From positions 1-60,657 of IMG/VR virus record IMGVR_UViG_3300028895_000276: a stretch of 60,657 bases of DNA; one strand, written 5' to 3'. The notes below the pieces were generated by a model. It saw nothing but the letters and a program-made list of their open reading frames with translations, searched no databases and was not told the DNA's origin. This stretch comes from a virus. This document shows positions 13,542 through 60,657 of this stretch, in pieces. The position numbers and the translations under genes are program-made. Position 1 is the first letter of the stretch; the number at the start of each line of letters is the position of its first letter.

Positions 13542-14840
13542 CGGTAACTCCCCTTTCGAGTAAACAGCACTGTGGATCCGCGCCACCTTGTGCAAGAAAT
13601 AGGACCGAGGACGAGGTACCCGTTGCGTGCGTCCTTGCCCCTCGCGCCTATAGCAATAGTGCGCCTCCCGCAGATGTACTCCACAGTACCCGTGCAACCC
13701 TAGGTTGATGTTGAACTCCCAGTCCTCTCGCCCGTTGTCCATCCTGTTAGAATAGCCACCGGTTTCCAACCATGCAATACGCGGAAACATGATACCCTTA
13801 TGCATACAGTTACGGTCTAACAGTTCATCAAACACGTACTCTGGCATGACCTTACGCTGTCGTGCTCCGTTCCTGCCGTGGTAGACGATGTCGTCGTAGA
13901 CCACGCTGTGTGGGTTTGCTAGCTGCAACTCGTACATGCGCTCTAGCCGCCGAGGTGCCATCCAGTCATCGCCATCCAGGACCGTGCAGAACCTGCCCTT
14001 GGCTATGCTCAGGCCGGCGTTAGCCGCCGAACTCGCGCCACCGTTGCGCTGCCGTACGTAGTGAATCGCCTTCCACGGGTCGTGTAGTCTCTGCCCGACT
14101 ATGGGCGTATTGTCCATGCTGCCGTCGTCCACTATAATGATCTCGGTAGCCTGGAACGTCTGGTCTAGCACCGAAGTCACAGCCTGCTCTAGATAGCGCC
14201 CATAGTTGTAGCACGTTATGATCACGCTGATCTCTGGTGGCGTCTTGATCAACCACCGTCTAGCTGCCCTGTCGCCACCAACATCCTCTATAGCCTGTCT
14301 GATACTGGTGCCGTAGGTCTTCGGTCTCTTATGCTTGAAGTAGCCACGCACGTCCAGCGGCTGCACCCGGAACCCGCTGCGGCACGCCCGCAGTTGATAC
14401 TCGCACGTGGCACCCCATAGTGGATAGAGGTCTCCGTTGAAGCCGCCTATAGCGTTCAGCAGGTCACGACGCACGAACATGAACGTTCCCTGTACATAGC
14501 CGTTAGGCCAGCCAGGGTGTTTCATAACGCCGTCACCGATGATCGCATAGCTCTGTCTCTCTGCTAGCGCACGCTGCCATCCGTTCAGCAACTCGCCGTC
14601 CTGGTTCAGCACCAGCACGTCCGTGTCACACTCAGCGAACCCACGGTTGCAGCCGCCCGAGAAGTAGCCGCGCTCATGCTGCTTGATCACGCGCACGTTA
14701 GGCCATCTGGATACGTCTGGTGGCGCACTGCCGTAATCGTTGATGACCAGGGTGGGGATATCCGCCGGCACGGTGTCCAGAAGAGCCGGCAACGTTGCGT
14801 GACCGTGCCAGAACGGGATGACTACAGTTAGGTTGTCCAA
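13011..14840 (-). CDS. Double glycosyltransferase joined in frame to a capsid-accessory-like C-terminus
   Basis: I start it at the TTG at 14840, behind GGAGGG; no ATG with a site exists and the frame opens into element E. The 609-residue product has two family-2 transferase domains. The first has LTVVIPFWHGHATLPALL and an LVINDYG region, with an LNQDGEL aspartate. The second begins SVIITCYNYGRYLEQAV, has IIIVDDGSMDN and LDGDDWM, the nucleotide- and metal-binding motifs. From about residue 434 the protein changes: MACCGGRRKTTPRVVV, then YLGANIGNQTINGPTGQRYK, a proline-rich linker and a C-terminal E3-binding-like domain (VSPAAASFAEVSG then GTGRDGKIIKRDV). In related phages the latter looks like a separate small gene next to the capsid gene. 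The gene follows major capsid, so the transferase may modify the virion or host surface. Confidence 0.75.
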   Translation of the reverse strand: MDNLTVVIPFWHGHATLPALLDTVPADIPTLVINDYGSAPPDVSRWPNVRVIKQHERGYFSGGCNRGFAECDTDVLVLNQDGELLNGWQRALAERQSYAIIGDGVMKHPGWPNGYVQGTFMFVRRDLLNAIGGFNGDLYPLWGATCEYQLRACRSGFRVQPLDVRGYFKHKRPKTYGTSIRQAIEDVGGDRAARRWLIKTPPEISVIITCYNYGRYLEQAVTSVLDQTFQATEIIIVDDGSMDNTPIVGQRLHDPWKAIHYVRQRNGGASSAANAGLSIAKGRFCTVLDGDDWMAPRRLERMYELQLANPHSVVYDDIVYHGRNGARQRKVMPEYVFDELLDRNCMHKGIMFPRIAWLETGGYSNRMDNGREDWEFNINLGLHGYCGVHLREAHYCYRREGQGRTQRVPRPRSYFLHKVARIHSAVYSKGELPMACCGGRRKTTPRVVVSKTGTRSSPAVAALAASRDDGSVLVKYLGANIGNQTINGPTGQRYKYGRNQRNMMFWADPVDAEWLTGMVEFERAALPAVQPQPEESVVKSPEPTPSEEPQKEKVVAPAPTPVEPVEYNVSPAAASFAEVSGVDLAEVTGTGRDGKIIKRDVQAVVKARG

Positions 14841-14859
14841 CAAACCCTCCGCTTTAACC

Positions 14860-14940
14860 GAAGGTACTTTCCTTGCACGTGACGGCATTCAGTGCTATGC
14901 TGGCCGCTATGTGTGCCGTCCTGTGCAAGGAAAATGCCTC
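14860..14940 (-). repeat. Dispersed palindromic element, copy E
   Basis: The most symmetric copy. On the plus strand GGTACTTTCCTTGC (14863-14876) with ACGTGACGGC pairs with GCCGTCCTGTGCAAGG and AAAATGCC (14915-14938), making a stem of about 24 bp with few mismatches. Each arm carries the CCTTGCAC-GGACGGC block of copies C and D. Flanking CTCCCGTTGC (14938-14947) is also shared. It lies between the major capsid hairpin and the glycosyltransferase start. Confidence 0.85.
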
Positions 14941-18216: not shown

Positions 18217-18438
18217 TCAACGCTCCGCGTCTTCTATCGCCAACTTAAACTCATCCCACGGAATGTAGTAGTCTGGATCACCTCGTCTGCGCACCTGCCG
18301 GCAGTTCAACGGCAGTCTGATGTGTACCATAGGACCGGATGCTGTACCTATCACTCGAAACAGCACGGTGCCCCTGTCATCGCCAACGCGGACGAATCCG
18401 TCGTCGTCCCTGACTACTTGATCGAGACTTCGTGCCAT
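18217..18438 (-). CDS. Small hypothetical protein
   Basis: A 73-residue protein, ATG 18438 overlapping the end of the second sulfotransferase. It starts MARSLDQVVRDDDGFVRVGD and is mostly beta strand by sequence character, with a basic centre (LNCRQVRRRGDPDYYIPWDE). No family was recognised. The start overlap suggests it is co-translated with the sulfotransferases and belongs to the transcript that ends before the capsid promoter. Confidence 0.5.
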   Translation of the reverse strand: MARSLDQVVRDDDGFVRVGDDRGTVLFRVIGTASGPMVHIRLPLNCRQVRRRGDPDYYIPWDEFKLAIEDAER

Positions 18439-19289
18439 CGTCTGTAGTCCTGCCAGCAGCCGTGTATAATCATCGTCTCCTGCTCTTTGTTCAAGTCCTC
18501 GCAGTACCGATCGATATGTGCTTGCTCCGTATCCACGATAGACGCCATCTGTACCCGCTCTTCATGCGTGCGCTGCTCTAGCCCTAGAGCCTCGTACAGC
18601 TTGAATATCTGAGCGTCAGGTTCGCCAACTAACCGCTCTAACTCCATGACCGCGTAGTTGTCCTCGTCAACCAGCAGCCTCTGGTCCCACGCCTGCTTCA
18701 TCCGCTCGTGATACCACCACGGGAAGTCGCCATACCTGATCGGTCCCCACTTGCGCGGTACCACCGATGCTGCCACGTCACGCGGGTCACGGATAACGTG
18801 CACGAACTTGGCGTCGGGTAGGGACATCTGCAGGAACGATGCCCAACCCACACACGCCGGCTCCTTGATGACGATGTCCGTCTTGCCTACGTGTGGACAG
18901 ATCATGCCGAATGCCCGCCGCATGAAGAACCGCGCATACTCGTACCTAGTACGGGTGCTGGTAGCTGCCATGTAGTCTAGGTGGCGCCAGGTCTCCGGTG
19001 TGTAGATCTGGTCTGCCCGATCCCACACGCCGAACCGCTTCAGGTTGTTTAGCATCGTGCAGTTGTAGCGTTCCAGCAGATTAGCTATAAACTCCTCTCT
19101 GTCGATGTCGTTCCTGTACGCGTAGTCTGCCAGTCCCCCAGGACCAAACAGCCACTTAGGTTCATAGAACACCGCGAACCTGCCGTCACGTTGCAGGATC
19201 TGCCCCAGCAGCGTCGTGCCACTGCGTCCAGTGCCTCCCACGAAGATAATCACTCTCGCCTCCGTACTCGACCCATCATACTCATGCAC
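18414..19289 (-). CDS. Sulfotransferase, second of a pair
   Basis: A 291-residue cytosolic-type sulfotransferase. It would transfer sulfate from PAPS to a hydroxyl or amine on a sugar, lipid or protein. The 5'-phosphosulfate loop is VGGTGRSGTTLLGQIL near residue 20, and the 3'-phosphate motif is VHVIRDPRDVAASV near residue 165 (R..P...S pattern). Both are intact. It overlaps the other sulfotransferase gene by about 40 bases in a different frame. Two such genes embedded in the head module between head morphogenesis and protease genes are unusual; the target is unknown. Confidence 0.8.
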   Translation of the reverse strand: MHEYDGSSTEARVIIFVGGTGRSGTTLLGQILQRDGRFAVFYEPKWLFGPGGLADYAYRNDIDREEFIANLLERYNCTMLNNLKRFGVWDRADQIYTPETWRHLDYMAATSTRTRYEYARFFMRRAFGMICPHVGKTDIVIKEPACVGWASFLQMSLPDAKFVHVIRDPRDVAASVVPRKWGPIRYGDFPWWYHERMKQAWDQRLLVDEDNYAVMELERLVGEPDAQIFKLYEALGLEQRTHEERVQMASIVDTEQAHIDRYCEDLNKEQETMIIHGCWQDYRRWHEVSIK

Positions 19290-19909
19290 CTGTCTCGTCT
19301 GCCAATCCAGTCAGCCAGCATAACCACCGCAGAGTAGGTGTCGCCCTGCGTCAGCTCTCTGTAGTGCAACGGCAGATGTGGTCGCTGTTGCAGCTTCAGA
19401 AAGTCGTGGATGCTCTGGTAGTAGTCGGCGTATAGCCTAGCCCACTGCACCTCGCTGTGGCGCCTGTTGTTTCTCCTGATCAGGCTCTCGATGACGCTGG
19501 TCTCGTCCCTGTACGTGATCACATAGCGCGGTATGCAGTGTTCCTCTCTCAGGATCCTGTCCCACGCGAAGCACGTCAGACTGGTCCTAGGATCCTTGAA
19601 GCCCCACTCGTCGTGTACGCTCCTCTCTCGGATAGCCTGCACCATTATATCGTGCAGCAACTCCGTAGCATCAGATAGCGCCGCTATAGACGGTACTTTA
19701 GCCCAGCTACCACCGGCAGTCTTTAGCAGTGCTCTGTTGACGGTGGACATGCCGGTGTCTTCGAAATACCCGTACGGTTGATGGGTATCGCGCCGGCTGC
19801 GGTCCTCCTCGCTGCACATCGGCAACCCAGCGGCATCCAGCATTGAAGCTGCCAGCGAAGTGCCCGTTCTATGCATCCCCAGCACCACATAGACGACCGG
19901 ACGTTTCAT
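19250..19909 (-). CDS. Sulfotransferase-family protein, first of a pair
   Basis: I choose the ATG at 19909 because it has GGGAGGAG seven bases upstream. The 219-residue product opens MKRPVVYVVLGMHRTGTSLA, whose GMHRTGTS is the 5'-phosphosulfate loop of sulfotransferases, followed by LDAAGLPM. A second region with EWGFKDPRTSLTCFAWDRI and RYVITYRDETSVIESLIRR fits the 3'-phosphate-binding helix ('YRD...V..SL'). The family includes sulfotransferases acting on carbohydrates. It lies right after the head morphogenesis gene. Its pair at 18414-19289 is only distantly similar, so this is not a simple recent duplication. Confidence 0.75.
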   Translation of the reverse strand: MKRPVVYVVLGMHRTGTSLAASMLDAAGLPMCSEEDRSRRDTHQPYGYFEDTGMSTVNRALLKTAGGSWAKVPSIAALSDATELLHDIMVQAIRERSVHDEWGFKDPRTSLTCFAWDRILREEHCIPRYVITYRDETSVIESLIRRNNRRHSEVQWARLYADYYQSIHDFLKLQQRPHLPLHYRELTQGDTYSAVVMLADWIGRRDRCMSMMGRVRRRE

Positions 19910-20556
19910 ACGTCGCTCCTCCCACGGTAGTCCAGATAGCACTGACAATTAGTCAGACACACGGTCTCGCCGCTGCCAGGGATAGCCGGTCTACCGCTGC
20001 TAGGCGATATAAACTCTTCGTCGATGCTCTTCCAACCCTCGCCGCTGAGGTCCTCACAGTCTGGGCAGTTCTCCGCAGCAGCGTTCATCACCCATCGATG
20101 CTCGGAATATCCACGCGACTGGCTCGCAGCCAGCAGCCCACGCTCATATGCCTCGCGGCTCGAGTTGGCATACATACGTGCTCTCGCACGGATCTGGCCC
20201 TCTGTAAGATCACCGGCTGCTACCTCGCCGTAGAAGCCGTCTAGATAGCGGTACTGGTCTGCTATGCTGCCGCCGATGCTGCCCCAGTCAGATTGCGTCA
20301 TCTGGTCGGTGCCACCACGCCCCACCAGGTATTGAGCGATGTACTGGTCCTTGATCTCCGTGCGCATCGCTGCGTGCCAGTCATCCGGACTGATGCTGTT
20401 GGTAGAGACCATATCCGCTAGGACGCCCATAACGTCACCGCCGGCAGAGATCGCCGTGTCGATCTCCGTCCGCACCTCAGCGTATGTAACTAGCCTGCCG
20501 GTCTCGATGTTGCGGTACCCGGTCCCTCTGAGCCTTGGATCGTATGTAAACGGCAT
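19906..20556 (-). CDS. Head morphogenesis protein (Mu F / SPP1 gp7-like)
   Basis: A 216-residue protein, ATG 20556 behind GACTAGGAG. It follows the portal gene, where this family sits. The C-terminal half has the hallmark cysteine pattern: RWVMNAAAENCPDCEDLSGE, a proline-rich turn and then GETVCLTNCQCYLDYRG, a zinc-like Cys set. The N-terminal half is helical. The protein joins portal and capsid during head assembly and may be ejected with DNA. It is shorter than the Mu F homologues and appears to be the C-terminal part of that family. Confidence 0.75.
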   Translation of the reverse strand: MPFTYDPRLRGTGYRNIETGRLVTYAEVRTEIDTAISAGGDVMGVLADMVSTNSISPDDWHAAMRTEIKDQYIAQYLVGRGGTDQMTQSDWGSIGGSIADQYRYLDGFYGEVAAGDLTEGQIRARARMYANSSREAYERGLLAASQSRGYSEHRWVMNAAAENCPDCEDLSGEGWKSIDEEFISPSSGRPAIPGSGETVCLTNCQCYLDYRGRSDV

Positions 20557-24794: not shown

Positions 24795-25633
24795 TCCTCC
24801 TGGTCGTATGGCAGCACTCGATACATGGTGTCGCGTAGGCACTCGCCGGTGACTCTCTCAACCACGCCGTCCTTCTCCAGCGTCCTCATGGCGCGTCTGA
24901 CATATGCCTTGTCGAACCCGAACCACTGCTGCAAAGGCCACGACACGTTGACTATGCGGCACGGCTTACCATCACCGATTAGCACAGCCAGCACCAACTC
25001 GGTGAGCGTGTGCACGTAGTTCAACTGTGCGTAGGGATGCTCTAGCGTCTTGCACGGTCTGCGCCACAGCACGTTCCACACCTCGTGTGCCGTCACCGTA
25101 TCGATGTCCTCCCTGCCCCACAGATAGGTCCTGCCGAAGATAGGGTAGTCAACTGCCTCAGGCTGCAGATCAGCGGTATCGAACACGGATGCTAGCAGCG
25201 CTGCACTCATCCGCTTACCGAGGAACCCGTGCCCGCGTAGCACGTCCGCGCCATCGCCACGCACCGGTACCCGGATCTCGTAGTTGCCGCGAGGGTTGGT
25301 GTCTCTGGTAAACAGCTTCTGCATGACCAACGTGTTGATCGCCCGGTGCGCCAGGTTCGATTCGTTAGGCGTGTCGTACTCTAGGGTGTGCTCCGATAGA
25401 CGACTCGTCCCGTTCAGCAACTTGGCTATGGCGTACACGTACGTGCGCCACAGCGCTATGCCCCTCGCCCCACCGCCGAACACCTGGTCGATGCTCCTGG
25501 TGGCTACGGTGGCCAGATCCAGCAACATAGTCTTGCGCATCGCGCTTATTGCCTGTGCCATCGCTACGTTCACTCCTGTCGTGTCTGCTTCCAGTCTCAC
25601 CCGTACATCATCAAGACCCATCGCTGTCGCCAT
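24791..25633 (-). CDS. Winged-helix protein, possible replication or regulatory protein
   Basis: A 280-residue protein, ATG 25633 behind GGAGGGAGAT, overlapping the prim-pol stop. The N-terminal half is helical (AMAQAISAMRKTMLLDLATV). The C-terminal 60 residues (WPLQQWFGFDKAYVRRAMRT, LEKDGVVERVTGECL) form a likely winged helix that binds DNA. Its neighbour is the prim-pol gene on the same transcript, so a role in replication initiation or in controlling the divergent early promoters is plausible. I do not recognise the family. Confidence 0.55.
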   Translation of the reverse strand: MATAMGLDDVRVRLEADTTGVNVAMAQAISAMRKTMLLDLATVATRSIDQVFGGGARGIALWRTYVYAIAKLLNGTSRLSEHTLEYDTPNESNLAHRAINTLVMQKLFTRDTNPRGNYEIRVPVRGDGADVLRGHGFLGKRMSAALLASVFDTADLQPEAVDYPIFGRTYLWGREDIDTVTAHEVWNVLWRRPCKTLEHPYAQLNYVHTLTELVLAVLIGDGKPCRIVNVSWPLQQWFGFDKAYVRRAMRTLEKDGVVERVTGECLRDTMYRVLPYDQED

Positions 25634-27254
25634 ATCTCCCTCCGTGTGCTTTGATCGCCTGCGACATAGTCTCGTGCACGTGCCGGCGTGCCTCGCTATC
25701 GCGCTTCCCTGACACGCCGAACCAGTCCGACAAGACCGTTATCACCTCGTCCACGTCCGCAGACCCTACCCAGCGCCACCGGGTGTACCGACCATTCCCA
25801 GCACACTCCACGGCTCCGGTCTCACGCAGACGCGCTAGATACCTCTTAAACGTCGCCCTACCGACCACCTCCTCACCCATCGTAGCTAGCAACTCCGATA
25901 CGCTGCCCCACTCGCCGGCTTGCGATAGCATCGCCGTCAGCACTCGGATGCCAGCCTTCCCCATCCCAGTGCTATAGACCAGATCGCTACGCTGCAGCTC
26001 TCCCAGGATATTGCGATTAAATGAACCCGTCCGTGGATGAGCCGAGAACGCACCGTCTCTTTCGGCTCTTTCGGAATCATCTTTTTCTGTTAAGTCTTTG
26101 AAAGAAAATGATTCTGCGTGAGCCGAAAGAAGGGTATCGACGGACAGCCTATACTCCCTGGACGTAACCATAGAACCTGCCTTGCTGGTCTCCAGGATGC
26201 CGGCGTCTAGTAGTCGCTGCACTGCGGACCATGCGCCCTTGTAGCTGCTGCCTATGTTCTCAGCTATCTGCCTAAGAGACTGACTGCGGCACAAACCGTT
26301 ACCGCTGAGACGATAGTCAGTAATGTCACCGGTCAGCAGCGCGATGAATGCAGCCTGCGAGTTGCGCCTCGCCACCGCACCCCAGCCGCCGAGGTGTGCC
26401 CAATCGATCAGGGACGCAGCAGCAGTGATCTCGTCTAGCCTTTCAGCTATTTCAACTCCGTTATGTTCGAGGAACCCGGCTGCGCCCTCGTACGTGCGCA
26501 TCAACCACGCATCCGCATCCGCAGCCGGCAGCGCCGCGTAGTGCCCATATCCGCCGTCTTGCCGCAGCAGCCTGCCAATATCGTCCAGCGGAACGCCGGT
26601 ACTGCAGAGACTGCAGACTATGCTGGCATCCGAAGCACTCGCGCCACCGCTGGTGGTCAGCCTGTATGCCGGATCCCCACGCAGCATCGTGTCTGCCCGT
26701 AGGCTTATGTACCAGGATGGTGCCGGCTGCAGACCAGGGAACACCCGCTGCACGTCGGCAAACTCCAGCATCGGGACATTGCGATAGTCAAGCATCGAGG
26801 ACCACATGTACTCTCTGCCCTCTGGATGCAAGCTAGGCGGTAGCAGCGCCGCCACCCCTCGCCCGAGGAACTCGAGGTCTTGCACGTCTGCCGAGTTGGA
26901 CGTAGCCGGCGCCGTGTCCAAACGCAGCATCGCTTTCACGCCGCCCGCGTGTGCACCCGTGCTTCCACTCACTATCTCTGGCAGCACGTCGAACCCGAGG
27001 TGGCACAACCGGCGCCATAGCTCGTCGCTAGCGGATGGGGAATCGGCATCGAACACCAACAGGTTGCCGCTGGCAGACCCGCACGCCACAGCCACATTGC
27101 TGTCGTCCGCGAAGACAGCCGGCAGCAGTGACGCCGGCATCGCTCTACCTAGCAGAGGTCGCGTGTGCACGCTGGGTCGCTTAGCACCCTTGAGGAACGG
27201 GATGGGACTGTAGCCGGCAGCTAACAGATCAGCCGCCGCTCGAAGACTGCTCAT
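25611..27254 (-). CDS. Prim-pol N-terminal domain protein with winged-helix C-terminus
   Basis: I choose the ATG at 27254 (AGGGGAG seven bases upstream); the longer frame covers the promoter. The 547-residue product opens like bifunctional DNA primase-polymerases: LLAAGYSPIPFLKGAKRPS, NVAVACGSASGNLLVFDADS with the DxD metal pair near residue 69, STGAHAGG for the nucleotide-binding histidine, and FLGRGVAALLPPSLHPEGRE (R..GG..v.PPS pattern). The rest holds winged-helix segments (for example SLRQIAENIGSSYKGAWSAV). It may prime or start DNA synthesis. It is transcribed from its own minus-strand promoter, away from the plus-strand replication genes. Confidence 0.7.
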   Translation of the reverse strand: MSSLRAAADLLAAGYSPIPFLKGAKRPSVHTRPLLGRAMPASLLPAVFADDSNVAVACGSASGNLLVFDADSPSASDELWRRLCHLGFDVLPEIVSGSTGAHAGGVKAMLRLDTAPATSNSADVQDLEFLGRGVAALLPPSLHPEGREYMWSSMLDYRNVPMLEFADVQRVFPGLQPAPSWYISLRADTMLRGDPAYRLTTSGGASASDASIVCSLCSTGVPLDDIGRLLRQDGGYGHYAALPAADADAWLMRTYEGAAGFLEHNGVEIAERLDEITAAASLIDWAHLGGWGAVARRNSQAAFIALLTGDITDYRLSGNGLCRSQSLRQIAENIGSSYKGAWSAVQRLLDAGILETSKAGSMVTSREYRLSVDTLLSAHAESFSFKDLTEKDDSERAERDGAFSAHPRTGSFNRNILGELQRSDLVYSTGMGKAGIRVLTAMLSQAGEWGSVSELLATMGEEVVGRATFKRYLARLRETGAVECAGNGRYTRWRWVGSADVDEVITVLSDWFGVSGKRDSEARRHVHETMSQAIKAHGGRYGDSDGS

Positions 27255-27291
27255 AGGCATCTCCCCTGGTACGCGTGGGTGTGGTCCTTTT

Positions 27292-27320
27292 ATTAAACCA
27301 CACGATGGCGCCGAGGTCAA
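27292..27320 (-). promoter_or_regulatory. Promoter for the prim-pol operon
   Basis: On the minus strand: TTGACC (27320-27315), 17 bases, then TGTGGTTTAAT with TTTAAT at 27297-27292. The TGTGG before the -10 is the same as in the plus-strand early promoters. It faces away from them, so the two arms are transcribed divergently from 27.3-27.5 kb. An ATGACA half-site lies at 27361-27366. Confidence 0.75.
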
Positions 27321-27368
27321 GTACCTGACAAACGACAAGGATACCTATCATATGCCGCACATGACATA

Positions 27369-27471
27369 GAACGCCTGTCCTACAGTACCGAAGTCATGTC
27401 ATGCCTAATACATGACATGTGTCATGTCTTGCCAGAAAATACTTGACAAAGAGGCCAAGGTGTGGTTTAAT
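27369..27471 (+). promoter_or_regulatory. Early promoter/operator module 1
   Basis: Three parts: an upstream box GAACGCCTGTCCTACAGTAC, the palindrome ACATGACATGTGTCATGT (27410-27427), and the promoter TTGACA (27443-27448), 17 bases, TTTAAT (27466-27471). Nearly the same module recurs at about 29.0, 30.0 and 34.1 kb. The palindrome is placed just upstream of the -35, so a dimeric protein binding there could activate, or block polymerase. Confidence 0.85.
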
Positions 27472-27516
27472 GGGGGTAGATCAGAGGACGCAGACAGAGA
27501 GACCAGGAGAGACAAG

Positions 27517-28650: not shown

Positions 28651-28662
28651 CAGACATATACC

Positions 28663-28691
28663 TTGACACGGTGGCCAGCTTGTGGTTTAAT
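28663..28691 (+). promoter_or_regulatory. Early promoter without operator
   Basis: TTGACA (28663-28668), 17 bases, TTTAAT (28686-28691), again with TGTGG before the -10. The ATGACA-TGTCAT palindrome and upstream box of the other modules are missing, so this promoter would escape any control acting through them. Confidence 0.8.
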
Positions 28692-28733
28692 AGAAGTAAG
28701 CTGGCCACCACCAGCCAGCATAAGGAGGACGAG

Positions 28734-28997: not shown

Positions 28998-29087
28998 AAC
29001 GCCCGTCCTACATGACCACGGTACTATATGACACCTGTCATGTCTTGCCCGGAAATACTTGACAAAGAGGCCAAGGTGTGGTTTAAT
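28998..29087 (+). promoter_or_regulatory. Early promoter/operator module 2
   Basis: Upstream box GAACGCCCGTCCTACATGAC, palindrome ATGACACCTGTCAT (29028-29041), then TTGACA (29059-29064), 17 bases and TTTAAT (29082-29087). Downstream bases through the ribosome site of the next gene are also repeated in modules 3 and 4, so the whole block of about 130 bp is copied. Confidence 0.85.
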
Positions 29088-29132
29088 GGGGGTAGATCAG
29101 AGGACACCAGCCAGCAGACAGGGAGAGACGAG

Positions 29133-29954: not shown

Positions 29955-30044
29955 AACACCCGTCCTACATGACCACGGTACTATATGACAGGTGTCATGT
30001 CTTGGCCGGAAATACTTGACAAAGAGGCCAAGGTGTGGTTTAAT
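29954..30044 (+). promoter_or_regulatory. Early promoter/operator module 3
   Basis: Upstream box GAACACCCGTCCTACATGAC, palindrome ATGACAGGTGTCAT (29985-29998), TTGACA (30016-30021), 17 bases, TTTAAT (30039-30044). It is almost identical to module 2 through the next start codon, implying a recent duplication of the control block. Confidence 0.85.
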
Positions 30045-30089
30045 AGGGGTAGATCAGAGGACACCAGCCAGCAGACAGGGAGAGACGAG

Positions 30090-34031: not shown

Positions 34032-34132
34032 AACGCCTGTCCTACAGTACCGAGGTCATGTATGCCGACAACATGACAGGTGTCATGTCTTGCCCGGAAA
34101 TACTTGACAAAGAGGCCAAGGTGTGGTTTAAT
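34030..34132 (+). promoter_or_regulatory. Early promoter/operator module 4
   Basis: Box GAACGCCTGTCCTACAGTAC, palindrome ACATGACAGGTGTCATGT (34071-34088), TTGACA (34104-34109), 17 bases, TTTAAT (34127-34132). Closest in its upstream box to module 1, and in its palindrome to module 3. Confidence 0.85.
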
Positions 34133-34178
34133 AGGGGTAGATCAGAGGACACCAGCCAGCAGACAGGAGACAGACGAG

Positions 34179-42013: not shown

Positions 42014-43825
42014 ATGAGCTACTACGCCTTAAGCTTCGAACCCGGTGACGTAGAAGAGCCTCTGACAGCAGAGGACATCGCCGCGATAGCTGCATCAGAT
42101 ATGGTGGCTATCGACACGGAGACCACCGGGCTGGACTACGACAGCAGGATCCTTGGTATTAGCGTAGCGTGGCGCGTGCCCGGTGCTATGCACAGTGCCT
42201 ACCTGAACCTTAGTCACCCGCTGAGCCTGTTTTCAGCACGCATCGACGACGACATCGTCGCGGACGTGATGAGAGCGGTCTTTGAACCGGACCGACCGGT
42301 GGCTCTGCTAAACGCCGTCTTCGACATAGAGAAGCTGTCACGCTGGGGTCACCTGGAGCTGCCTATCGAATACCCGTACCTCTACGACGCACAGATCCTG
42401 GCGCGTTGGCTGATGTCCTTCGAGAAGTTCCAAGGCGTCAGCATGGAGAAGCTAGTTAGCCGGCGCCTAGGCGGCATGCCGCCGTGGATGAGCAGCATGA
42501 AGAAGATGAGGTCCAAGCTAGGGACGCTACCAGCGGAGAAGGTCAGCCCGTACGCCCGCGCCGACGCCGAGTTCACCTTGATGCTGGTCGAGGATCTGAT
42601 GCGCGAGGGTAGACTGCTCTACGACGACGAAGTCCTAGACACGATGCTGGAACGCGAGAGCCGGTTTTTGTGGTTACTCACCCGGATCCAGCGACACGGT
42701 ATCCTGCTGGACCTCGAAGAGATCCACGAGCGGTCCGTACGAATGACCGCAGACATGCAAGAGCTGCGAGCGTTCCTGAAGCAGAACGGCATTCACAACC
42801 CGGACAGCCGCGATAGCGTTCTCAAGGGTCTACCTATGCACATCGTGGCAGGACTACCGCAGACCGACAACGGCAACTACAAGATCGACAGTGCTGCCCT
42901 AGCCGGAAAAGGACCGGTGGCCGAGGCAGTATTGCGCTATCGCAGTTTAGGCAAGGCCGTTGGTACGTGGCTGGACGGTTTCCGCAGCAAGGTAGCCAGC
43001 GATGGCCGGCTGCATCCGCGATTCCGCGCTGCCGGCACGGTCTCTGGCCGGCTGTCCTGCAACGAGCCGAATTTGCAGGCTGTCCCACTAGCGGACCGTG
43101 GCGCCGCGTTCGGTAGCCTGATGGGTATATTCAAGGCAGCACCTGGATTCTCGCTGTTGGCTGCAGACTACGAGCAAGCCGAGCTTCGGACGTGCGCCGC
43201 GTATGCTAAGTCTACCGCTATGGCCAACGCATTCAAGAACGGAGAGGATATTCACTCGTTTGCTGCTAGTCTGATGTGGCCGGACTCGGAGATCAACTAC
43301 GAGCTACGGCAGCTAGGCAAACGTTGCAACTACTGCACCACCTACGGTGGCGGGTACCGTGCGCTGGCCGAGAACACTGGCATACCTGAGAGCGAAGCCA
43401 AGATCGTCATCAACACGTACCGTCGTGCCTTCCCTGAACTGGTAGCAGCACAGAATCGCGCCGGTGACGTATGGGAGCAGCGAGGGTACATCACGATGTG
43501 GAATGGCCGCCGGCACTACAAGTCACCTAACGACGGCAGCTACAAAGCCTTCAACCAGGTCATGCAGGGTGACGTAGCTGAGCTGGTCAAGGACGCTATG
43601 CTGAGTGTGGACGCCCGGTTCGCAGAGATGGGTGTTGGCAACATCGTGCTACAGATCCACGACAGCATCGAAGTCGAGGTACAGACCGACGCCGTCGAGG
43701 ACGTGAAAGCGATGATGCGTAAGGAGATGGTAGCCGCCGCACCGCTGCACATCATGAACCGCACTGAGCCGCCTATCACCATGGACGTTGGGTTCGAGAA
43801 CTGGTACCCCGAGGAGGACGAATGA
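42014..43825 (+). CDS. polA: Family A DNA polymerase with 3'-5' exonuclease (DpoZ candidate)
   Basis: ATG 42014 behind AAGGAGGGACGACC; 603 residues. Exonuclease motif VAIDTETTGLDYDSRILGIS near residue 35. Polymerase parts: TVSGRLSCNEPNLQAVP near 345, motif A LLAADYEQAELRTCAAYA near 385, motif B RCNYCTTYGGGYRALA near 437, motif C QIHDSIEVEV near 547. The usual Glu after HD in motif C is Ser here. It lies 1 kb upstream of purZ; family A polymerases beside purZ are known as DpoZ and prefer dZTP. The specificity cannot be read from sequence. No thumb insertion or fusion is seen. Confidence 0.88.
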   Translation: MSYYALSFEPGDVEEPLTAEDIAAIAASDMVAIDTETTGLDYDSRILGISVAWRVPGAMHSAYLNLSHPLSLFSARIDDDIVADVMRAVFEPDRPVALLNAVFDIEKLSRWGHLELPIEYPYLYDAQILARWLMSFEKFQGVSMEKLVSRRLGGMPPWMSSMKKMRSKLGTLPAEKVSPYARADAEFTLMLVEDLMREGRLLYDDEVLDTMLERESRFLWLLTRIQRHGILLDLEEIHERSVRMTADMQELRAFLKQNGIHNPDSRDSVLKGLPMHIVAGLPQTDNGNYKIDSAALAGKGPVAEAVLRYRSLGKAVGTWLDGFRSKVASDGRLHPRFRAAGTVSGRLSCNEPNLQAVPLADRGAAFGSLMGIFKAAPGFSLLAADYEQAELRTCAAYAKSTAMANAFKNGEDIHSFAASLMWPDSEINYELRQLGKRCNYCTTYGGGYRALAENTGIPESEAKIVINTYRRAFPELVAAQNRAGDVWEQRGYITMWNGRRHYKSPNDGSYKAFNQVMQGDVAELVKDAMLSVDARFAEMGVGNIVLQIHDSIEVEVQTDAVEDVKAMMRKEMVAAAPLHIMNRTEPPITMDVGFENWYPEEDE

Positions 43826-44448
43826 CCGAAGAGAAAGAGCCGTATCTGGACCACCCCAGCGCCACAGAGCAAGACGCTACCTGGAGGAACACATCCAGCG
43901 TGGATTGGCTGTCGCCACCCGAGGTGCTAGCAGCCGCCCGCAACGTCATGGGCAAGTTCGATCTCGATCCAGCCAGCAGCGAGAAGGCTAACCAGTTCGT
44001 GCGCGCCGAGGTATTCTTCGGACAGGACAACGGCACGGACGGTCTGCAGATGCCCTGGCGTGGCAGGGTCTGGTTGAATCCACCATACGGTAAGTACAAA
44101 CCGGGTGTCAGCCGTGCCGGCATGTGGGGCAAGAAGCTACTCGAGGAGTACATCGCAGGCAAGGTAATAGAAGCGTGCCTGTACGTCAAGACCGCCGTTG
44201 GCTATAAGTGGTTCGACAAACTACTGCAGCAGGCCGATGCCGTCTGTTTCCTGTGGGGTCTGCCCGAGCACCTGAACCTCGTAGACAACCGCTACGGGAA
44301 GTGCAAGATGGGCAGAGCAGTGATGTACTACGGGTCGCACCCTGCACAGTTCGTGCAGTGCTTTAGGCACCTAGGCTATTTCCGGTTCGACGCCGCCGAC
44401 CGCACGGATTACCACGTCCTACGCGCTGTTGGTATGGCCAAATTCTAA
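43822..44448 (+). CDS. Phage Dam-like N6-adenine methyltransferase
   Basis: A 208-residue protein whose ATG overlaps the polymerase stop. It fits the phage Dam family: SSVDWLSPPEVLAAARNVMG, FDLDPASSEKANQF (the D-x-A-type SAM site), and the catalytic NPPYG in RVWLNPPYGKYKPG near residue 90. It would methylate the N6 amino group of adenine in a target site. In a genome with 2-aminoadenine the base still has an N6 amino group, so activity remains possible; the protein might instead act on host DNA. Confidence 0.7.
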   Translation: MTEEKEPYLDHPSATEQDATWRNTSSVDWLSPPEVLAAARNVMGKFDLDPASSEKANQFVRAEVFFGQDNGTDGLQMPWRGRVWLNPPYGKYKPGVSRAGMWGKKLLEEYIAGKVIEACLYVKTAVGYKWFDKLLQQADAVCFLWGLPEHLNLVDNRYGKCKMGRAVMYYGSHPAQFVQCFRHLGYFRFDAADRTDYHVLRAVGMAKF

Positions 44449-44462
44449 CGGAAGGAGACACC

Positions 44463-44786
44463 ATGAAGGACTCGTTGCAAGCGAAGGTCGGATCCGTGCT
44501 GTTCATGTTGGCGATGATTGGGTTGACCATCGGCGCCGCTGCCTACTTCGGCAATCTGCTGATCGAGGAGATAGTCAGCAACCGCGCCGAGACCATCCTG
44601 GCGAACGGTGAGCTGGCTATCGATGAAGCCATCGCCCGCAGCATCGACGCCGGCACAGCCGCTTCGATGGCAGACACCAGGCTAGCCACCGCTATGTCCT
44701 GGTACCCGTTCGTCATCGGAGTAACTGCCGTGTTCGCTGTCGTTTTCTACGTCCTACTGACAGCGCCGGCACGGAAGAACAGTTAA
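44463..44786 (+). CDS. Small membrane protein
   Basis: A 107-residue protein, ATG 44463 behind GGAAGGAGACACC. Two membrane segments (residues 10-31 and 78-100) around a helical loop. Lies between the methyltransferase and purZ. Unknown role. Confidence 0.55.
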   Translation: MKDSLQAKVGSVLFMLAMIGLTIGAAAYFGNLLIEEIVSNRAETILANGELAIDEAIARSIDAGTAASMADTRLATAMSWYPFVIGVTAVFAVVFYVLLTAPARKNS

Positions 44787-44798
44787 TAGTCATGTGTA

Positions 44799-44845
44799 GC
44801 TAGTGACACCTGACACTAGCACGGAGCAGCAAACTGGTGTTTAAT
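44799..44845 (+). promoter_or_regulatory. Palindrome and -10-like site before purZ (module 8)
   Basis: GCTAGTG (44799-44805) pairs with CACTAGC (44814-44820) around ACACCTGA, a diverged relative of the operator that also makes a hairpin. TGGTGTTTAAT with -10 at 44840-44845 follows, 30 bases before the purZ ATG. No clear -35. Confidence 0.55.
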
Positions 44846-44876
44846 AGGGTCACGTCACAACCCACAGGAGGAAGCG

Positions 44877-45974
44877 ATGTTACAGCAGGTATGGAGTATC
44901 GTTGGCGGTCAGGCCGGCAGCGAAGGCAAAGGCAAGGCAGCCGGGTATCTGGCAGCCGCTCTCAAGCCCGAGGTGGTAGCGTGCGCGTTCACCGCCAACG
45001 CTGGCCACACAGCGTATGACCGGGACGGCAACAAGATCGTCGTGCACACCATCCCGATTGGCGCGTTCTTCGGCGCAAAGCTGGTCGTCATCGGACCGGG
45101 TGCTGCCATCCGCACGTGGCGCCTGATCGAGGAGATGGAAGCGTTGCACCGCGTGAACCCGGACTGCAAGGTGCTGCTAGACGAGAACGTGGTACTCATC
45201 TCACCGGAGCAGGTAGCGTGGGAAGCCGAGACGATGAAGAAGATCTCGTCCACGTGCCAAGGCGTGGGACGCGCACAGGCCGACAGGCTACTGCGGCAGG
45301 GTCGCGCAGACACCGCTAGCAACCACGCACCCACCTTCATCGAAGGTCTCACAGTAGGCAGCGCCGCCGAGGTGTTGCAGGTGCGCTACGATTCCGGTGA
45401 CAAGATCCAGATCGAAGGTTGTCAAGGTATCGACATCGACCTACTACACGGGATCCAGTACCCGTACTGCACCAGCCGCAGCATCACCGCCGCAGCCGTG
45501 GCTAACGACTGTGGATTCCCTGCAACCCGCGTGGACAGCGTGGTCTCGGTGTTCCGCACCTACCCTATCCGCGTGGGCAACGTGGTTGAGGAAGGCAAGC
45601 AGGTTGGATGGAGCGGACCTATCCCACGGGACAGCGACGAGTTGACGTGGGACGAGATGACCAAGCTGGCCGGCAGCCCCGAGAGACTAGAGGAGCGAAC
45701 CACCGTCACCAAGAAGGTACGCCGCATCTTCACGTGGAGCCGGCAGCGCTACATCGTCTCGCAGTGGCTGAACAACGCCACGCACGCGTGGGTTAACTTC
45801 GGTGACTACCTCGACTGGAACATCCACGGCGTGTGCGGCAACACCACAGAGCTGCATAGCATCAGCAAGACCGCTGCGCAGTGGGTTGACACCGAGATCG
45901 GCATGTCACACCTGCTGGCACTCGGTACCGGTCCTGGCATGGATGACGTGATCGCGCATCCTAGACTGAGGTAG
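44877..45974 (+). CDS. purZ: PurZ, 2-aminoadenylosuccinate (dSMP) synthetase
   Basis: A 365-residue PurA-family protein, ATG 44877 behind AGGAGGAAGCG. PurA joins IMP and Asp; PurZ joins dGMP and Asp, giving the precursor of 2-amino-dAMP. The N-terminal loop reads GGQAGSEGKGK (residues 10-20), where PurA has GAQWGDEGKGK: the catalytic Asp is Ser15, the change that marks PurZ. The second catalytic residue stays (NAGHT, His44). The Asp-binding loop reads TTVTKKVRRIFTW, unlike the GRRRR of PurA. Length (PurA about 430) fits PurZ. Next genes encode PurB and a MazG-like protein. This is the first step of Z-DNA synthesis by known family biochemistry; activity here is inferred. Confidence 0.88.
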   Translation: MLQQVWSIVGGQAGSEGKGKAAGYLAAALKPEVVACAFTANAGHTAYDRDGNKIVVHTIPIGAFFGAKLVVIGPGAAIRTWRLIEEMEALHRVNPDCKVLLDENVVLISPEQVAWEAETMKKISSTCQGVGRAQADRLLRQGRADTASNHAPTFIEGLTVGSAAEVLQVRYDSGDKIQIEGCQGIDIDLLHGIQYPYCTSRSITAAAVANDCGFPATRVDSVVSVFRTYPIRVGNVVEEGKQVGWSGPIPRDSDELTWDEMTKLAGSPERLEERTTVTKKVRRIFTWSRQRYIVSQWLNNATHAWVNFGDYLDWNIHGVCGNTTELHSISKTAAQWVDTEIGMSHLLALGTGPGMDDVIAHPRLR

Positions 45975-45976
45975 CG

Positions 45977-47116
45977 ATGATCGAGCGCTACAACAACGCA
46001 GACATCGCTGGTATCTGGAGCACCACGAGCCAGTACCAGCGATGGCTGGACATCGAGAGGACTTGGATACGCTGCTTACTGGACATCGATCCACCGATGG
46101 TACCAGGAGAGGTGGTTATTCACGACATCCGCGTCAATACGTACGAGATCGAGCACTTCGAGACCGTGACACACCACGATGTGCGAGCATTCCTGATGTG
46201 GCTAGAGCGTGAGCTGCCGTCGCCGCTACGCAGATACCTACACCTAGGACTAACAAGCTCTGATGTCGTAGACACCGGCACAGCCCTAGCAGTGCGCGGT
46301 AGCGTGCGCGTGTTGGATGATATCTACAGCCGGCTGATACACTACCTGTACAAGAGTGCAGCCAGCGCGCCGCCGCTGCTACCATCCTACTCACACGGGC
46401 AGCCGGCACGCAGCATCTCGAGCGCCCACTTCTACCGGCGTCTAGAGATACCCATAGGTAGAGCGTTCTCAGAGGTGAGCGTATCGCAGCTGCCCATAGC
46501 CATCGGTGGTCCTACTGGCGAATGGTCAAGCTTACCACCAGGAGCCACGTCCACGCTGCTGCAAGCACGCTCATCTTTCAACGTCATCATGTCCACCCGC
46601 TACGGCGTAAAGAACGTAGCGCCGAGATCGCAGGCTCTGGACCGCTCTTACTACACGAAGCTAGCACAGGCACTCAGCAGGATGTCCAACGCACTGTCAC
46701 AGGCTGCCCTGCACCTGAGGTTCTACCACCTACGCGGTATGCTGCGGATAGGCGGTACAGCCTCATCATCAGCGATGCCGAACAAGAGCAACCCAGTACG
46801 CCTAGAGAAGGTGTGCGGCATGGCACGCGTAGCGCGAGGGTACGCTCTGATGGCCGGCTGCAACCAGGACACGTGGGAGCTACGCGACATCAGCAACTCG
46901 TCAGTAGAAAGGGTCTGGATGCCGGATCTGTTCCACACGGTGGCACACCAGGTTAGCACGCTCTGCAACGTGATCGCCAAGATGCAGTGGGTCGAGCCGG
47001 CAATCGACGCTGAGCTAGCAGCCTTCCCCAATGACCCATTCGGAAAGATGGTGGCGTTGCAAGCCACCGGGATGCACTACAACAAAGCATGGCGCACAGC
47101 CAAGGAGGACACATGA
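45977..47116 (+). CDS. purB: Adenylosuccinate lyase
   Basis: A 379-residue PurB, 2 bases after purZ. It splits fumarate from adenylosuccinate-type intermediates, here likely the 2-amino deoxy form made by PurZ. Signs: VTHHDVRAFLMWLERELP near residue 66 (His of the acid-base pair), LGLTSSDVVDTG near 92, and the signature SSSAMPNKSNPVRLEK near 263 with the catalytic serine. Slightly shorter than bacterial PurB (430-460). Most Z-phages use host PurB; having its own may make the pathway independent of host supply. Confidence 0.88.
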   Translation: MIERYNNADIAGIWSTTSQYQRWLDIERTWIRCLLDIDPPMVPGEVVIHDIRVNTYEIEHFETVTHHDVRAFLMWLERELPSPLRRYLHLGLTSSDVVDTGTALAVRGSVRVLDDIYSRLIHYLYKSAASAPPLLPSYSHGQPARSISSAHFYRRLEIPIGRAFSEVSVSQLPIAIGGPTGEWSSLPPGATSTLLQARSSFNVIMSTRYGVKNVAPRSQALDRSYYTKLAQALSRMSNALSQAALHLRFYHLRGMLRIGGTASSSAMPNKSNPVRLEKVCGMARVARGYALMAGCNQDTWELRDISNSSVERVWMPDLFHTVAHQVSTLCNVIAKMQWVEPAIDAELAAFPNDPFGKMVALQATGMHYNKAWRTAKEDT

Positions 47117-47601
47117 GCACTGACTACAGCCGGCTGGGAGTGGTACCTATTGCCGACGTCACACAGGACCACGTGCAAGGATACGCCCGCGAGATGACAC
47201 CCAGCGCCGGCATCGTTCCGCTACACGACATCGAGCGCGTCATCGCGAGTATGTTTCTCAAGGTCAGGGACGGCGCTATGGACCGGATGCCCGGTACCCT
47301 GTCATTGTACGATGACGCGATGGCTATAGCGCCTCGCGTGCCCGGTATCGCGGACAAGCAACACGCTTTGGCCGAGGTACGCGCACGCATCAAAGAGCGA
47401 GGCGAGCAGTACGGGTGTGCCGTCCTCAACCTGATGGGTACCTGGTACACTAGCTCAAACGTGGCTGCCAAGCTACTGCGCGTGTGGGATCACTGGACAC
47501 AGCACAAGATCCTACTGACCGACGAAGTGCTAGACATCGCTGGGTACTGCATCTTGAACATGGCGATACTCACCCACAGCATGGCCGAGGTCGGACAATG
47601 A
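47113..47601 (+). CDS. MazG-like nucleotide pyrophosphatase candidate (MazZ role)
   Basis: ATG 47113 overlaps the PurB stop; the frame opens a little earlier without a site. The 162 residues end in a helical segment RIKERGEQYGCAVLNLMGTW, then VAAKLLRVWDHW and TDEVLDIAGYCILNMAIL. The pattern 'R..eYG..l........a.KL.R......D...DIAGY' matches phage MazG-like proteins, whose acidic DE..D set binds Mg2+. In Z-phages MazZ hydrolyses dGTP to dGMP, the PurZ substrate. Position beside purZ and purB supports this, but the family match is mine by eye. Confidence 0.55.
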   Translation: MSTDYSRLGVVPIADVTQDHVQGYAREMTPSAGIVPLHDIERVIASMFLKVRDGAMDRMPGTLSLYDDAMAIAPRVPGIADKQHALAEVRARIKERGEQYGCAVLNLMGTWYTSSNVAAKLLRVWDHWTQHKILLTDEVLDIAGYCILNMAILTHSMAEVGQ

Positions 47602-48458
47602 ACAGCATCTACCTAGCCGGTCCTCTGGACTACGCCAACCTAGGCGACAAGGCAGCGTGGCGCGAACGGTTCGCAGCTCTGCTGGGTCAGCACTCTCCCA
47701 TGTCCGCACAGCTACCGCTGCTCTACGATCCTAGCAAGCCTTTCACCAACCCGCTGTCCAGCCCGGACACGCTGGTTTCCGTGAACATGGCCGCACTGGA
47801 AGCAAGCTCTATCGTGATAGCACTGGTTATCTCGACCGAGCCGTCGTGGGGCACACCCATCGAGATATGGGAAGCACGCCGGCAAGGCAAGCCCGTGCTG
47901 TTGTGGGTACCGAACGAGGACTGCCCGCCCTACCTCATCGCAGACACTGAACGGTATCTGACGCTGAACGCCATCGCCGCTAGGACCGCTGAGATGTTGT
48001 ACCAGGACGCAGATACCGACCTCGTCACCACGTCTCAAGACCTACTGTACGAGAACGGTGGTATCCAGTTCCCCAAGATCTCTGGTGATGTAGGGTATGA
48101 CGTCGAGGTGATGTCACAGACCAGGCTACTGCCGCACGCCATCACCAAGGTGCCATTGGGATTCAACGGTGAGCCACTACGCGTGAAGACACCGCGTGGT
48201 ACGTGGTTCTCGATGTTCCCACGCAGCAGCATGGTCGACAAGGGTCTAATGGTCGTGAAGACCGTCTGCGACGAAGGGTACACCGGTGATCTGTTCATGT
48301 TCGTGTACAACACCACCAACAAGCTGCTGATGCTGCTACCCGGACAGAGGATCGGGCAGATCGTGCTGTTCGATAGCGTCACGCCGCAGATGCGCCACGT
48401 GTCTACACTACCGCGCACCGCACGTGGCAGTAACGGTTTCGGCAGCACAGGGACGTGA
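47598..48458 (+). CDS. Deoxyribosyltransferase-like / dUTPase fusion
   Basis: ATG 47598 overlaps the previous TGA; 286 residues. N-terminal part (1-145) resembles nucleoside 2-deoxyribosyltransferases: MNSIYLAGPLDYANLGDKAA, then VSVNMAALEASSIVIALV, TEPSWGTPIEIWEARRQGKP with the catalytic-type Glu. The C-terminal part (about 158-286) is a dUTPase with its five motifs: SGDVGYDVEV, PRSSM, VCDEGYTGDLF, PGQRIGQIVL and RGSNGFGSTGT. dUTPase gives dUMP; the first domain could swap bases or recycle nucleotides. The fusion in a purine operon is unusual. The domain order is clear; activity of the first domain is uncertain. Confidence 0.75.
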   Translation: MNSIYLAGPLDYANLGDKAAWRERFAALLGQHSPMSAQLPLLYDPSKPFTNPLSSPDTLVSVNMAALEASSIVIALVISTEPSWGTPIEIWEARRQGKPVLLWVPNEDCPPYLIADTERYLTLNAIAARTAEMLYQDADTDLVTTSQDLLYENGGIQFPKISGDVGYDVEVMSQTRLLPHAITKVPLGFNGEPLRVKTPRGTWFSMFPRSSMVDKGLMVVKTVCDEGYTGDLFMFVYNTTNKLLMLLPGQRIGQIVLFDSVTPQMRHVSTLPRTARGSNGFGSTGT

Positions 48459-48898
48459 CCGTGAATAGGGACAGCCTACGCATCATCCGCACCACACCAA
48501 ACCCGAAAGACTACGCGTTGCACTGGTCAACCGCGTGGAACAGACACGTGAAACAGCGGTCAGTGATGCCAGAACCGATCTGCACCGACACCACCGGTGA
48601 GCTGGAGTTCGCCTACGCAGACCTCGACCGGCACTGGCGCTTCGACTGGTGTATACCCGAAGCCAAGGTCGCAGTAGAGGTGGACGGCGGCAAGATGATC
48701 GTACGCCGCACGCGTAGCGGCAAGGTCGTGCCAGTAGGCCGGCACATACAGGACGACGACGCGTGGAAGCTAAACAGCGCCGCGTCCCTAGGGTGGTTGG
48801 TATTCACCTTCACTCCGGCAATGCTGCGCAAAGACCCTGTCCGCTGCGTCGAGATGGTCGAGGAGACCGTGCTACAACGACTAGCGGGTTTGGTTTAA
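48455..48898 (+). CDS. Vsr/DUF559-like endonuclease-fold protein
   Basis: A 147-residue protein starting at GTG 48455 that overlaps the previous stop. It has an endonuclease-like pattern: RFDWCIPEAKVAVEVDGGKM (D...E-x-D type active site), RHIQDDDAWKLNSAASLGWL and VFTFTPAMLRKDP, with the D-then-E-x-D spaced like PD-(D/E)XK enzymes. It may cut mismatched or branched DNA or the host genome. Last gene of the nucleotide operon. Confidence 0.6.
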   Translation: MTVNRDSLRIIRTTPNPKDYALHWSTAWNRHVKQRSVMPEPICTDTTGELEFAYADLDRHWRFDWCIPEAKVAVEVDGGKMIVRRTRSGKVVPVGRHIQDDDAWKLNSAASLGWLVFTFTPAMLRKDPVRCVEMVEETVLQRLAGLV

Positions 48899-60030: not shown

Positions 60031-60657
60031 CTACCGCTTCCAGCCCCAATACTTGAAGACCCAGCCCCAGATATACACCGCGGAACCGGTCAGAGTGTCA
60101 GAGCCCAAATCTGCATACCTTGCGAATTGGAATGTTAGGATGTCCCCGAGTTCTGGCGTTGACGTGTCAAGCGTAATGGGGAAGAACCTTTGGTACTTGC
60201 CGAAGTCCGCAGCACCACCCCATGCCTCTGTCCCCAGAGACCCGCCACCAGCTTGCGCCGAAGCAGTCGCCTCTTTCCACCTCACCACACCAGTGAATCC
60301 GTAAAGATCGCCGGTTGCCACCAATGCCCCAAGGTAACCACAAGACCAGGCCAGAGGGTCCGTGTCGTCAATGTAGTTTTGTGGGACGTGACAAACGCCC
60401 TCAACGAAATTCCGCACAGAGTCAGGACACACACCGACCGGGTCGCCTGCAGAATCCTCGCCTATGTATTGCGTTGTGGTGCTTGTGTACTCTTCGACAG
60501 CCGCAGCAGGCACGAAAAGCTCTACCCACTCAGCGTCGACAAACTCGCGGTCGTAATGGTCGGAGAGATTCGAGACCACCGGGACCGAGCTTATGTCATA
60601 GGTCGCTAGCTCCAACATCCAAATGTCGCCCGCCACCGCTATGTCTTGCGTAAGCGC
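60031..60657 (-). CDS. Virion/baseplate-type protein, 3' part of the join-spanning gene
   Basis: C-terminal part of the gene starting at 621. Frame enters at the right edge (60657) and ends at the stop 60031. In this part a beta domain ends YIWGWVFKYWGWKR, comparable to the HVLGFVVKY/HVLGFVVEY ends of the 631-1806 repeats. A GTG at 60636 is not the start; the frame is open through the circular join to 621. Confidence 0.75.
   Translation of the reverse strand, partial: ALTQDIAVAGDIWMLELATYDISSVPVVSNLSDHYDREFVDAEWVELFVPAAAVEEYTSTTTQYIGEDSAGDPVGVCPDSVRNFVEGVCHVPQNYIDDTDPLAWSCGYLGALVATGDLYGFTGVVRWKEATASAQAGGGSLGTEAWGGAADFGKYQRFFPITLDTSTPELGDILTFQFARYADLGSDTLTGSAVYIWGWVFKYWGWKR
60514..60657. repeat. 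Terminal direct repeat, right copy
   Basis: Exact copy of bases 1-144. Confidence 0.95.

What the first reader, a model, noticed from the sequence alone, without database searches (positions are those of the whole stretch)
42014..48458. A compact Z-nucleotide cassette: polymerase, purZ, purB, MazG-like, deoxyribosyltransferase/dUTPase
Between 42 and 48.5 kb the phage has a family A polymerase, PurZ, its own PurB, a MazG-like protein that could supply dGMP, and a dUTPase fusion, all overlapping or within a few bases except the promoter gap. Known Z-phages often rely on host PurB. No HD-domain DatZ was found, so dATP exclusion may depend on the polymerase or on an unrecognised gene.
Basis: partly seen in the sequence, partly recalled or inferred. 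Interest (0 to 1): 0.75.

Follow-up and report, generated by a model that had tools for sequence, protein, structure and literature searches.

The report
Phage kit for replacing adenine

Summary
The cassette is real. The genome is complete: a 144-bp terminal repeat closes it at 60,513 bp. No HD/DatZ, MazZ, DUF550 or DUF5664 was found. In described PurZ0 phages dATP and dGTP are removed by DutZ, and dAMP by DmtZ, fused in phage Wayne (PMC12884076). The window's fusion matches that enzyme: full-length hits go to Z-phage fusions, the DmtZ triad, Asp12 and Pro57 are kept, and its dUTPase domain groups with DutZ (97/96). So the 'missing' dATP excluder is very probably this gene. The MazG claim is not supported: no Pfam or NCBIfam match, wrong motif spacing. 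PurZ keeps the hallmark Ser, but trees put it outside both PurZ and PurZ0 (AU p 0.02, 0.01). The polymerase keeps the canonical Tyr and is below the DpoZ cut-offs. PurB occurs in 6 of 50 PurZ records and abuts purZ only here. New variant of a known kind: a third PurZ lineage using the DmtZ-DutZ strategy. No biochemistry was done; Z in the DNA is inferred.

The parts
42014..43825 (+). family A DNA polymerase with 3'-5' exonuclease; motif B KRCNYCTTYG (canonical Tyr kept)
   Evidence: PF00476, PF01612; below NCBIfam DpoZ cut-offs; motif table; tree
43822..44448 (+).
   Evidence: PF05869 E 4.6e-11, phrog_111, motif; only 1 of 50 PurZ records has it
44463..44786 (+). small ORF, 107 aa, hydrophobic segments, unknown
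   Evidence: ORF and coding score; no family
44787..44876 (+). 90-bp gap with TGTTTAATAGGG, the -10-type element shared with early-gene repeats, and a 7-bp inverted repeat GCTAGTG/CACTAGC
44877..45974 (+). PurZ, N6-succino-2-amino-dAMP synthetase; Ser15 in place of PurA Asp13
45977..47116 (+). PurB, adenylosuccinate lyase family, short C-terminus; SSAMPNKSN signature and conserved His
   Evidence: TIGR00928 E 3.2e-51, alignments
47113..47601 (+). 162-aa predicted all-helical protein, function unknown; weak phrog_1485 match
47598..48458 (+). DmtZ-DutZ type fusion: nucleoside deoxyribosyltransferase domain + dUTPase-fold domain; predicted dATP/dGTP to dNMP and dAMP to adenine
   Evidence: PF05014 + PF00692; hits; residues; tree
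48455..48898 (+). next gene in the operon, phrog_503, unknown
25614..27338 (-). Prim-Pol domain protein, a second possible DNA polymerase
   Evidence: PF09250 E 1.6e-13

Best explanation
The operon makes dZTP and clears dATP. [quoted passage not shown] Its N-terminal domain (DmtZ type) destroys dAMP (to adenine and deoxyribose phosphate), or moves the deoxyribose phosphate onto a free Z base. PurZ joins dGMP and aspartate to succino-dZMP, and the phage's own PurB releases dZMP. Host kinases raise dZMP to dZTP, and PolA and/or Prim-Pol incorporate it. Selectivity for Z would then come mainly from the nucleotide pool rather than from a DpoZ-type polymerase. Shown here: gene identities, catalytic residues, family placement, absence of DatZ/MazZ, complete genome. 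Inferred from homologues: every enzymatic step and the presence of Z in the DNA.
For: Ser15 at the PurA Asp13 position, as in all 92 PurZ rows. Best PDB match of PurZ is S-2L PurZ 7odx, E 3.5e-36. Full-length (98-100% coverage) matches of the fusion go to Z-phage proteins: all listed rows with at least 80% coverage are Arthrobacter (Wayne-type) or Hiyaa-type Streptomyces phages, with 107 such records in all. DmtZ Tyr6, Asp12, Pro57, Asn77 and Glu103 are all conserved (numbering of PMC12884076). dUTPase domain in the Z-phage clade against canonical dUTPases, 97/96, with RSS instead of RSG and DEGYTGDLF, nearly Hiyaa's DEGYTGELF. No DatZ/MazZ/DUF5664 in a closed genome. PurB abuts purZ and keeps its signature. 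A second contig carries the same stretch at 99.94% over 19 kb.
Against: Z cannot be seen in sequence. PurZ and PurB score below the NCBIfam cut-offs (220.8 of 300; 174.5 of 326). The DmtZ lid Trp124 is Tyr here. The fusion shares only 26-30% identity with the characterised homologues, and the dUTPase tree has 13 rows with long branches. A plain dUTPase role is not excluded. A Dam-like adenine methyltransferase in the operon fits poorly with complete loss of adenine.
Confidence: 0.7

Rival explanations
1. Partial substitution: the phage makes dZTP, but with a non-selective polymerase its DNA is a mixture of A and Z, and the Dam-like methyltransferase acts on the remaining adenines.
For: Canonical Tyr in motif B, below DpoZ cut-offs; Dam-like gene in the operon, absent from 49 other PurZ records; a Prim-Pol is also present.
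Against: DutZ and DmtZ homologues deplete dATP strongly in vitro (PMC12884076); S-2L reaches full substitution with a non-selective PrimPol plus DatZ (PMC8065100); Hiyaa also has Tyr.
Confidence: 0.2
2. One reading: the 47113 product hydrolyses dGTP to dGMP and the polymerase itself excludes dATP.
For: The gene sits between purB and the fusion, overlapping both by 4 bp; predicted all-helical; weak C-terminal match to phrog_1485.
Against: No Pfam/NCBIfam match; ExxE and ExxD 39 residues apart instead of 12-28; no profile match to MazZ, DUF550, DUF5664 or the Ghobes gp51 group; polymerase lacks the Phe and lies outside DpoZ-2.
Confidence: 0.1
3. Not a Z-DNA phage: PurZ serves some other nucleotide chemistry, like the chromosomal Ser-type PurZ homologues found next to DCD-like and kinase genes in bacteria and archaea, and the fusion is an ordinary dUTPase with a salvage domain.
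For: 279 GTDB contigs encode such homologues; the window's PurZ is a long branch outside both proven clades.
Against: The chromosomal bacterial/archaeal homologues sampled fall mostly in a separate 100/99 clade that also holds PurZ0 and excludes the window; co-occurrence with a DmtZ-DutZ fusion and purB in one operon.
Confidence: 0.1

Closest known systems
PurZ0 phages, Arthrobacter phage Wayne and Streptomyces phage Hiyaa (PMC12884076)
   Same: PurZ with Ser; DmtZ-DutZ in one protein downstream of purZ; no DatZ; PolA; Wayne also has a primase/polymerase; Hiyaa also has PurB and a Tyr-gate polymerase
   Different: Window PurZ is not in the PurZ0 clade (AU p 0.013); purB directly behind purZ; no DUF5664; Dam-like gene
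Gordonia phage Ghobes
   Same: PurZ, PurB, DmtZ, DutZ, PolA, no DatZ
   Different: DmtZ and DutZ are separate genes; purB is 7 kb away on the other strand; polymerase has Phe
PurZ/DatZ/MazZ Z-cluster of S-2L, phiVC8 and SH-Ab 15497 (PMC8342488)
   Same: PurZ followed by nucleotide-pool enzymes
   Different: DatZ and MazZ absent here; window PurZ excluded from this clade (AU p 0.021)
L117, contig binned as Bacteroidetes
   Same: PolA with Tyr, purZ, dutZ-type dUTPase, a DUF1599 gene and a PurB-family lyase in one stretch
   Different: No fusion with an NDT domain; PurZ in another clade

Membership tests
PurZ (2-amino adenylosuccinate synthetase) | Ser in place of the PurA catalytic Asp13 | tested here: met
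   Ser15
PurZ (2-amino adenylosuccinate synthetase) | NCBIfam NF038379 curated cut-off, 300 bits | tested here: not met
   220.8 bits
PurZ0 subgroup | falls in the PurZ0 clade | tested here: not met
   outside a 100/99-100 clade; AU p 0.013
PurZ sensu stricto subgroup (DatZ phages) | falls in that clade and has DatZ and MazZ | tested here: not met
   AU p 0.021; no DatZ/MazZ
PurZ (2-amino adenylosuccinate synthetase) | condenses dGMP and aspartate | not testable with these tools
   needs enzyme assay
DmtZ | NDT fold with Tyr/Asn/Glu triad, Asp12 and Pro57 | tested here: met
   PF05014 35.6 bits over cut-off 28.8; all five residues
DmtZ | Trp124 lid | tested here: not met
   Tyr in the window, as in Bps140; the role of Trp124 is itself only modelled in PMC12884076
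DutZ | groups with Z-phage dUTPases rather than canonical ones | tested here: met
   97/96 split, 13 rows, RSS and GYxGxLF motifs
DutZ | hydrolyses dATP and dGTP | not testable with these tools
   needs enzyme assay
DpoZ | NCBIfam DpoZ cut-offs (500 and 350 bits) | tested here: not met
   133.1 and 96.3 bits
DpoZ | Phe at the motif B Tyr position (PMC8599892) | tested here: not met
   Tyr; but Hiyaa also has Tyr
DpoZ | falls in DpoZ-1 or DpoZ-2 clade | tested here: inconclusive
   outside DpoZ-2; sister to DpoZ-1 at 90/71
DatZ | HD-domain dATP triphosphohydrolase gene | tested here: not met
MazG/MazZ (47113 product) | ExxE-12 to 28-ExxD metal site and family profile | tested here: not met
   gap 39; no Pfam/NCBIfam/MazZ profile match
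PurB | fumarase-superfamily signature SSxMPxKxN and conserved His | tested here: met
   SSAMPNKSN at residue 264, His67, His89 and His140 aligned; total score 174.5 is below the 326 cut-off

The most novel reading that the evidence does not exclude
A third, independent Z-DNA lineage in which an unselective Tyr-gate polymerase copies a pool purged of dATP by a DmtZ-DutZ fusion, purine conversion needs no host PurB, and the operon's Dam-like enzyme methylates 2-aminoadenine at N6 in the finished DNA, a base not known in phage DNA to my knowledge.
Probability: 0.1. Interest if true: 0.8.

Novelty: new variant of a known kind. Interest (0 to 1): 0.55.

Why it matters
The 2026 survey of isolate genomes (PMC12884076) ties DutZ and DmtZ to PurZ0 and DatZ/MazZ to PurZ, and links two DpoZ clades to them. 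This genome and its environmental relatives do not fit that division: DmtZ-DutZ-type enzymes occur with PurZ proteins outside both clades, and with a polymerase lacking the Phe shared by the previously compared DpoZ clades. It makes testable whether the nucleotide pool alone can set Z over A. It also offers a compact purZ-purB-dmtZ-dutZ set for making Z-DNA without a host lyase.

Tried and rejected
DatZ hidden elsewhere: three HD-type Pfam families, a 52-sequence DatZ profile and a small DatZ profile, all six frames, nothing. MazZ/DUF550/DUF5664 profiles: nothing. 47113 product against the Ghobes gp51/Cicada gp56/Hiyaa gp68 group by hhalign: probability 0.2%; against the L117 DUF1599 gene: nothing. 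AlphaFold of the 47113 product without alignment: pLDDT 50, Foldseek hits all chance level, not used. Close DNA relatives among phage records: none. IMG/VR searches with the 47113 and fusion proteins found only the same virus. phrog_1485 is absent from 11 known Z-phages, so that match gives no link. Sigma-70 scan found no promoter upstream of purZ, but the TGTTTAATNGGG element occurs 6 times against 0.3 expected.
Full report
What is there. The window is an IMG/VR virus record. Bases 1-144 are identical to 60514-60657, so although the record is classed linear it closes to 60,513 bp, and absence of a gene means something. A second contig matches 35929-54965 at 99.94%, so the cassette is not an assembly accident. 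The early-strand operon reads: polA 42014-43825, Dam-family methyltransferase 43822-44448, membrane-type ORF 44463-44786, a 90-bp gap, purZ 44877-45974, purB 45977-47116, unknown 47113-47601, NDT-dUTPase fusion 47598-48458, phrog_503 gene 48455-48898.

PurZ. Ser15 stands where PurA has its catalytic Asp, as in all 92 PurZ rows compared; the best solved match is S-2L PurZ. A tree of 83 rows and one of 53 rows, the latter with chromosomal homologues, put the window outside the DatZ-type PurZ clade and outside PurZ0. Forcing it into either is rejected with AU p 0.021 and 0.013. Its nearest partner is L023 (86/92, not firm). It is a long branch, so the exact position is unsure; only the exclusions carry weight.

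The missing dATP excluder. DatZ is absent by three HD-type families and by a profile of 52 DatZ sequences taken from related contigs. PMC12884076 shows that PurZ0 phages use another solution: DutZ takes dATP and dGTP to dAMP and dGMP, and DmtZ takes dAMP to adenine or moves its deoxyribose phosphate to free Z; in Wayne the two are one protein. The window's fusion matches such proteins end to end. All listed rows with at least 80% coverage in 50,697 phage records are Arthrobacter (Wayne-type) or Hiyaa-type Streptomyces phages, and 107 records reach that coverage. The triad Tyr, Asn, Glu and the specificity residues Asp12 and Pro57 are kept; the lid Trp is Tyr. The dUTPase domains of the window, Hiyaa, Wayne, Cicada, Ghobes, L117 and L023 separate from six canonical dUTPases at 97/96, and share RSS where the canonical ones have RSG.

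Polymerase. Score is far below both DpoZ cut-offs. In phiVC8-like and Wayne-like DpoZ the motif B Tyr is Phe (PMC8599892). The window keeps Tyr, and so do Hiyaa, L020, L023, L024, L049, L058 and L117, while the polymerases of the DatZ-type PurZ clade in the table and those of Ghobes, Wayne and Cicada have Phe. In a 32-row tree the window is outside the phiVC8-type clade and next to the PurZ0-type polymerases with weak support (90/71). A Prim-Pol is also present. S-2L shows that an unselective PrimPol suffices if dATP is removed (PMC8065100). Whether this polymerase prefers dZTP cannot be told from sequence.

PurB. Six of 50 PurZ records carry a PurB: the window, Ghobes, Hiyaa and the records of L022, L043 and L044. 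In the other five it lies several kilobases or more from purZ; only here does it abut purZ. The signature SSAMPNKSN and aligned histidines are present, but the C-terminal part is short, as in Ghobes. PMC12783734 describes the usual route as using the bacterial PurB.

The 47113 gene. No Pfam, NCBIfam or PDB match. PHROG match E 0.0085 to an unknown family not found in 11 known Z-phages. The MazG metal motif spacing is wrong (39 against 12-28; [quoted passage not shown] Its position in the operon suggests a role in the pathway; no mechanism is assigned.

Wider context. Environmental PurZ contigs outside the two named clades carry NDT-like genes (Bps140 with all five DmtZ residues; L020 with four of them), DutZ-type domains fused to a kinase (L023), and in the L117 contig pol-purZ-dut-DUF1599-lyase. 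The tidy pairing of PurZ0 with DutZ/DmtZ and PurZ with DatZ/MazZ therefore seems to reflect the isolates sampled.

Limits. No enzyme was assayed, and Z reads as A in sequence. The trees involve long branches and 26-37% identity. The Dam-like gene is a loose end: either some adenine remains, or it methylates Z, or it acts on host DNA.

Noticed in passing
L101, L104, L107, L152, L161, L162; L115, L141, L143, L176: Chromosomal contigs of bacteria and archaea carry Ser-type PurZ homologues in two recurring islands: RNase_H_2/helix-hairpin-helix protein (seen in L107, similar ORFs elsewhere) - PurZ - DCD/dUTPase-like, often with a P-loop kinase; and kinase-PurZ fusion followed by a DUF7002 protein. 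279 contigs matched; function unknown, a defence or nucleotide-modification role is possible.
   Followed up: partly
window 43822-44448: Dam-family methyltransferase inside a predicted Z-DNA operon; the only one in 50 PurZ records by PF05869.
   Followed up: partly
L023:9094-10098; also L020, L024, L032, L089: Nucleotide-kinase domain fused to a DutZ-type dUTPase directly behind purZ (L023); P-loop kinase-like genes beside purZ in related contigs; a candidate dZMP kinase.
   Followed up: no
L117:5940-11719: Contig binned as Bacteroidetes with pol(Tyr), HAD, purZ, dUTPase, DUF1599 gene, nuclease-like ORF and PurB-family lyase in a row.
   Followed up: partly
L005:1543-2019(-): Bacillus phage vB_BpsS-140 has an NDT gene with all DmtZ residues but annotated hypothetical, although its PurZ is not PurZ0.
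   Followed up: partly
window 27442-27478, 28662-28698, 29058-29094, 30015-30051, 34103-34139, 44838-44849: Repeated promoter-like element CTTGACA-N17-TTTAAT in the early region; the -10 half also precedes purZ.
   Followed up: partly
window 18417-19289 and 19253-19948 (-): Two adjacent Sulfotransfer_3 family genes among the structural-strand genes, unusual for a phage.
   Followed up: no
window 13014-14888 (-): Large protein with a family 2 glycosyltransferase domain and an e3-binding-like C-terminus.
   Followed up: no
window 1-144 and 60514-60657: Exact 144-bp direct terminal repeat: the record is a closed genome although classed linear.
   Followed up: yes
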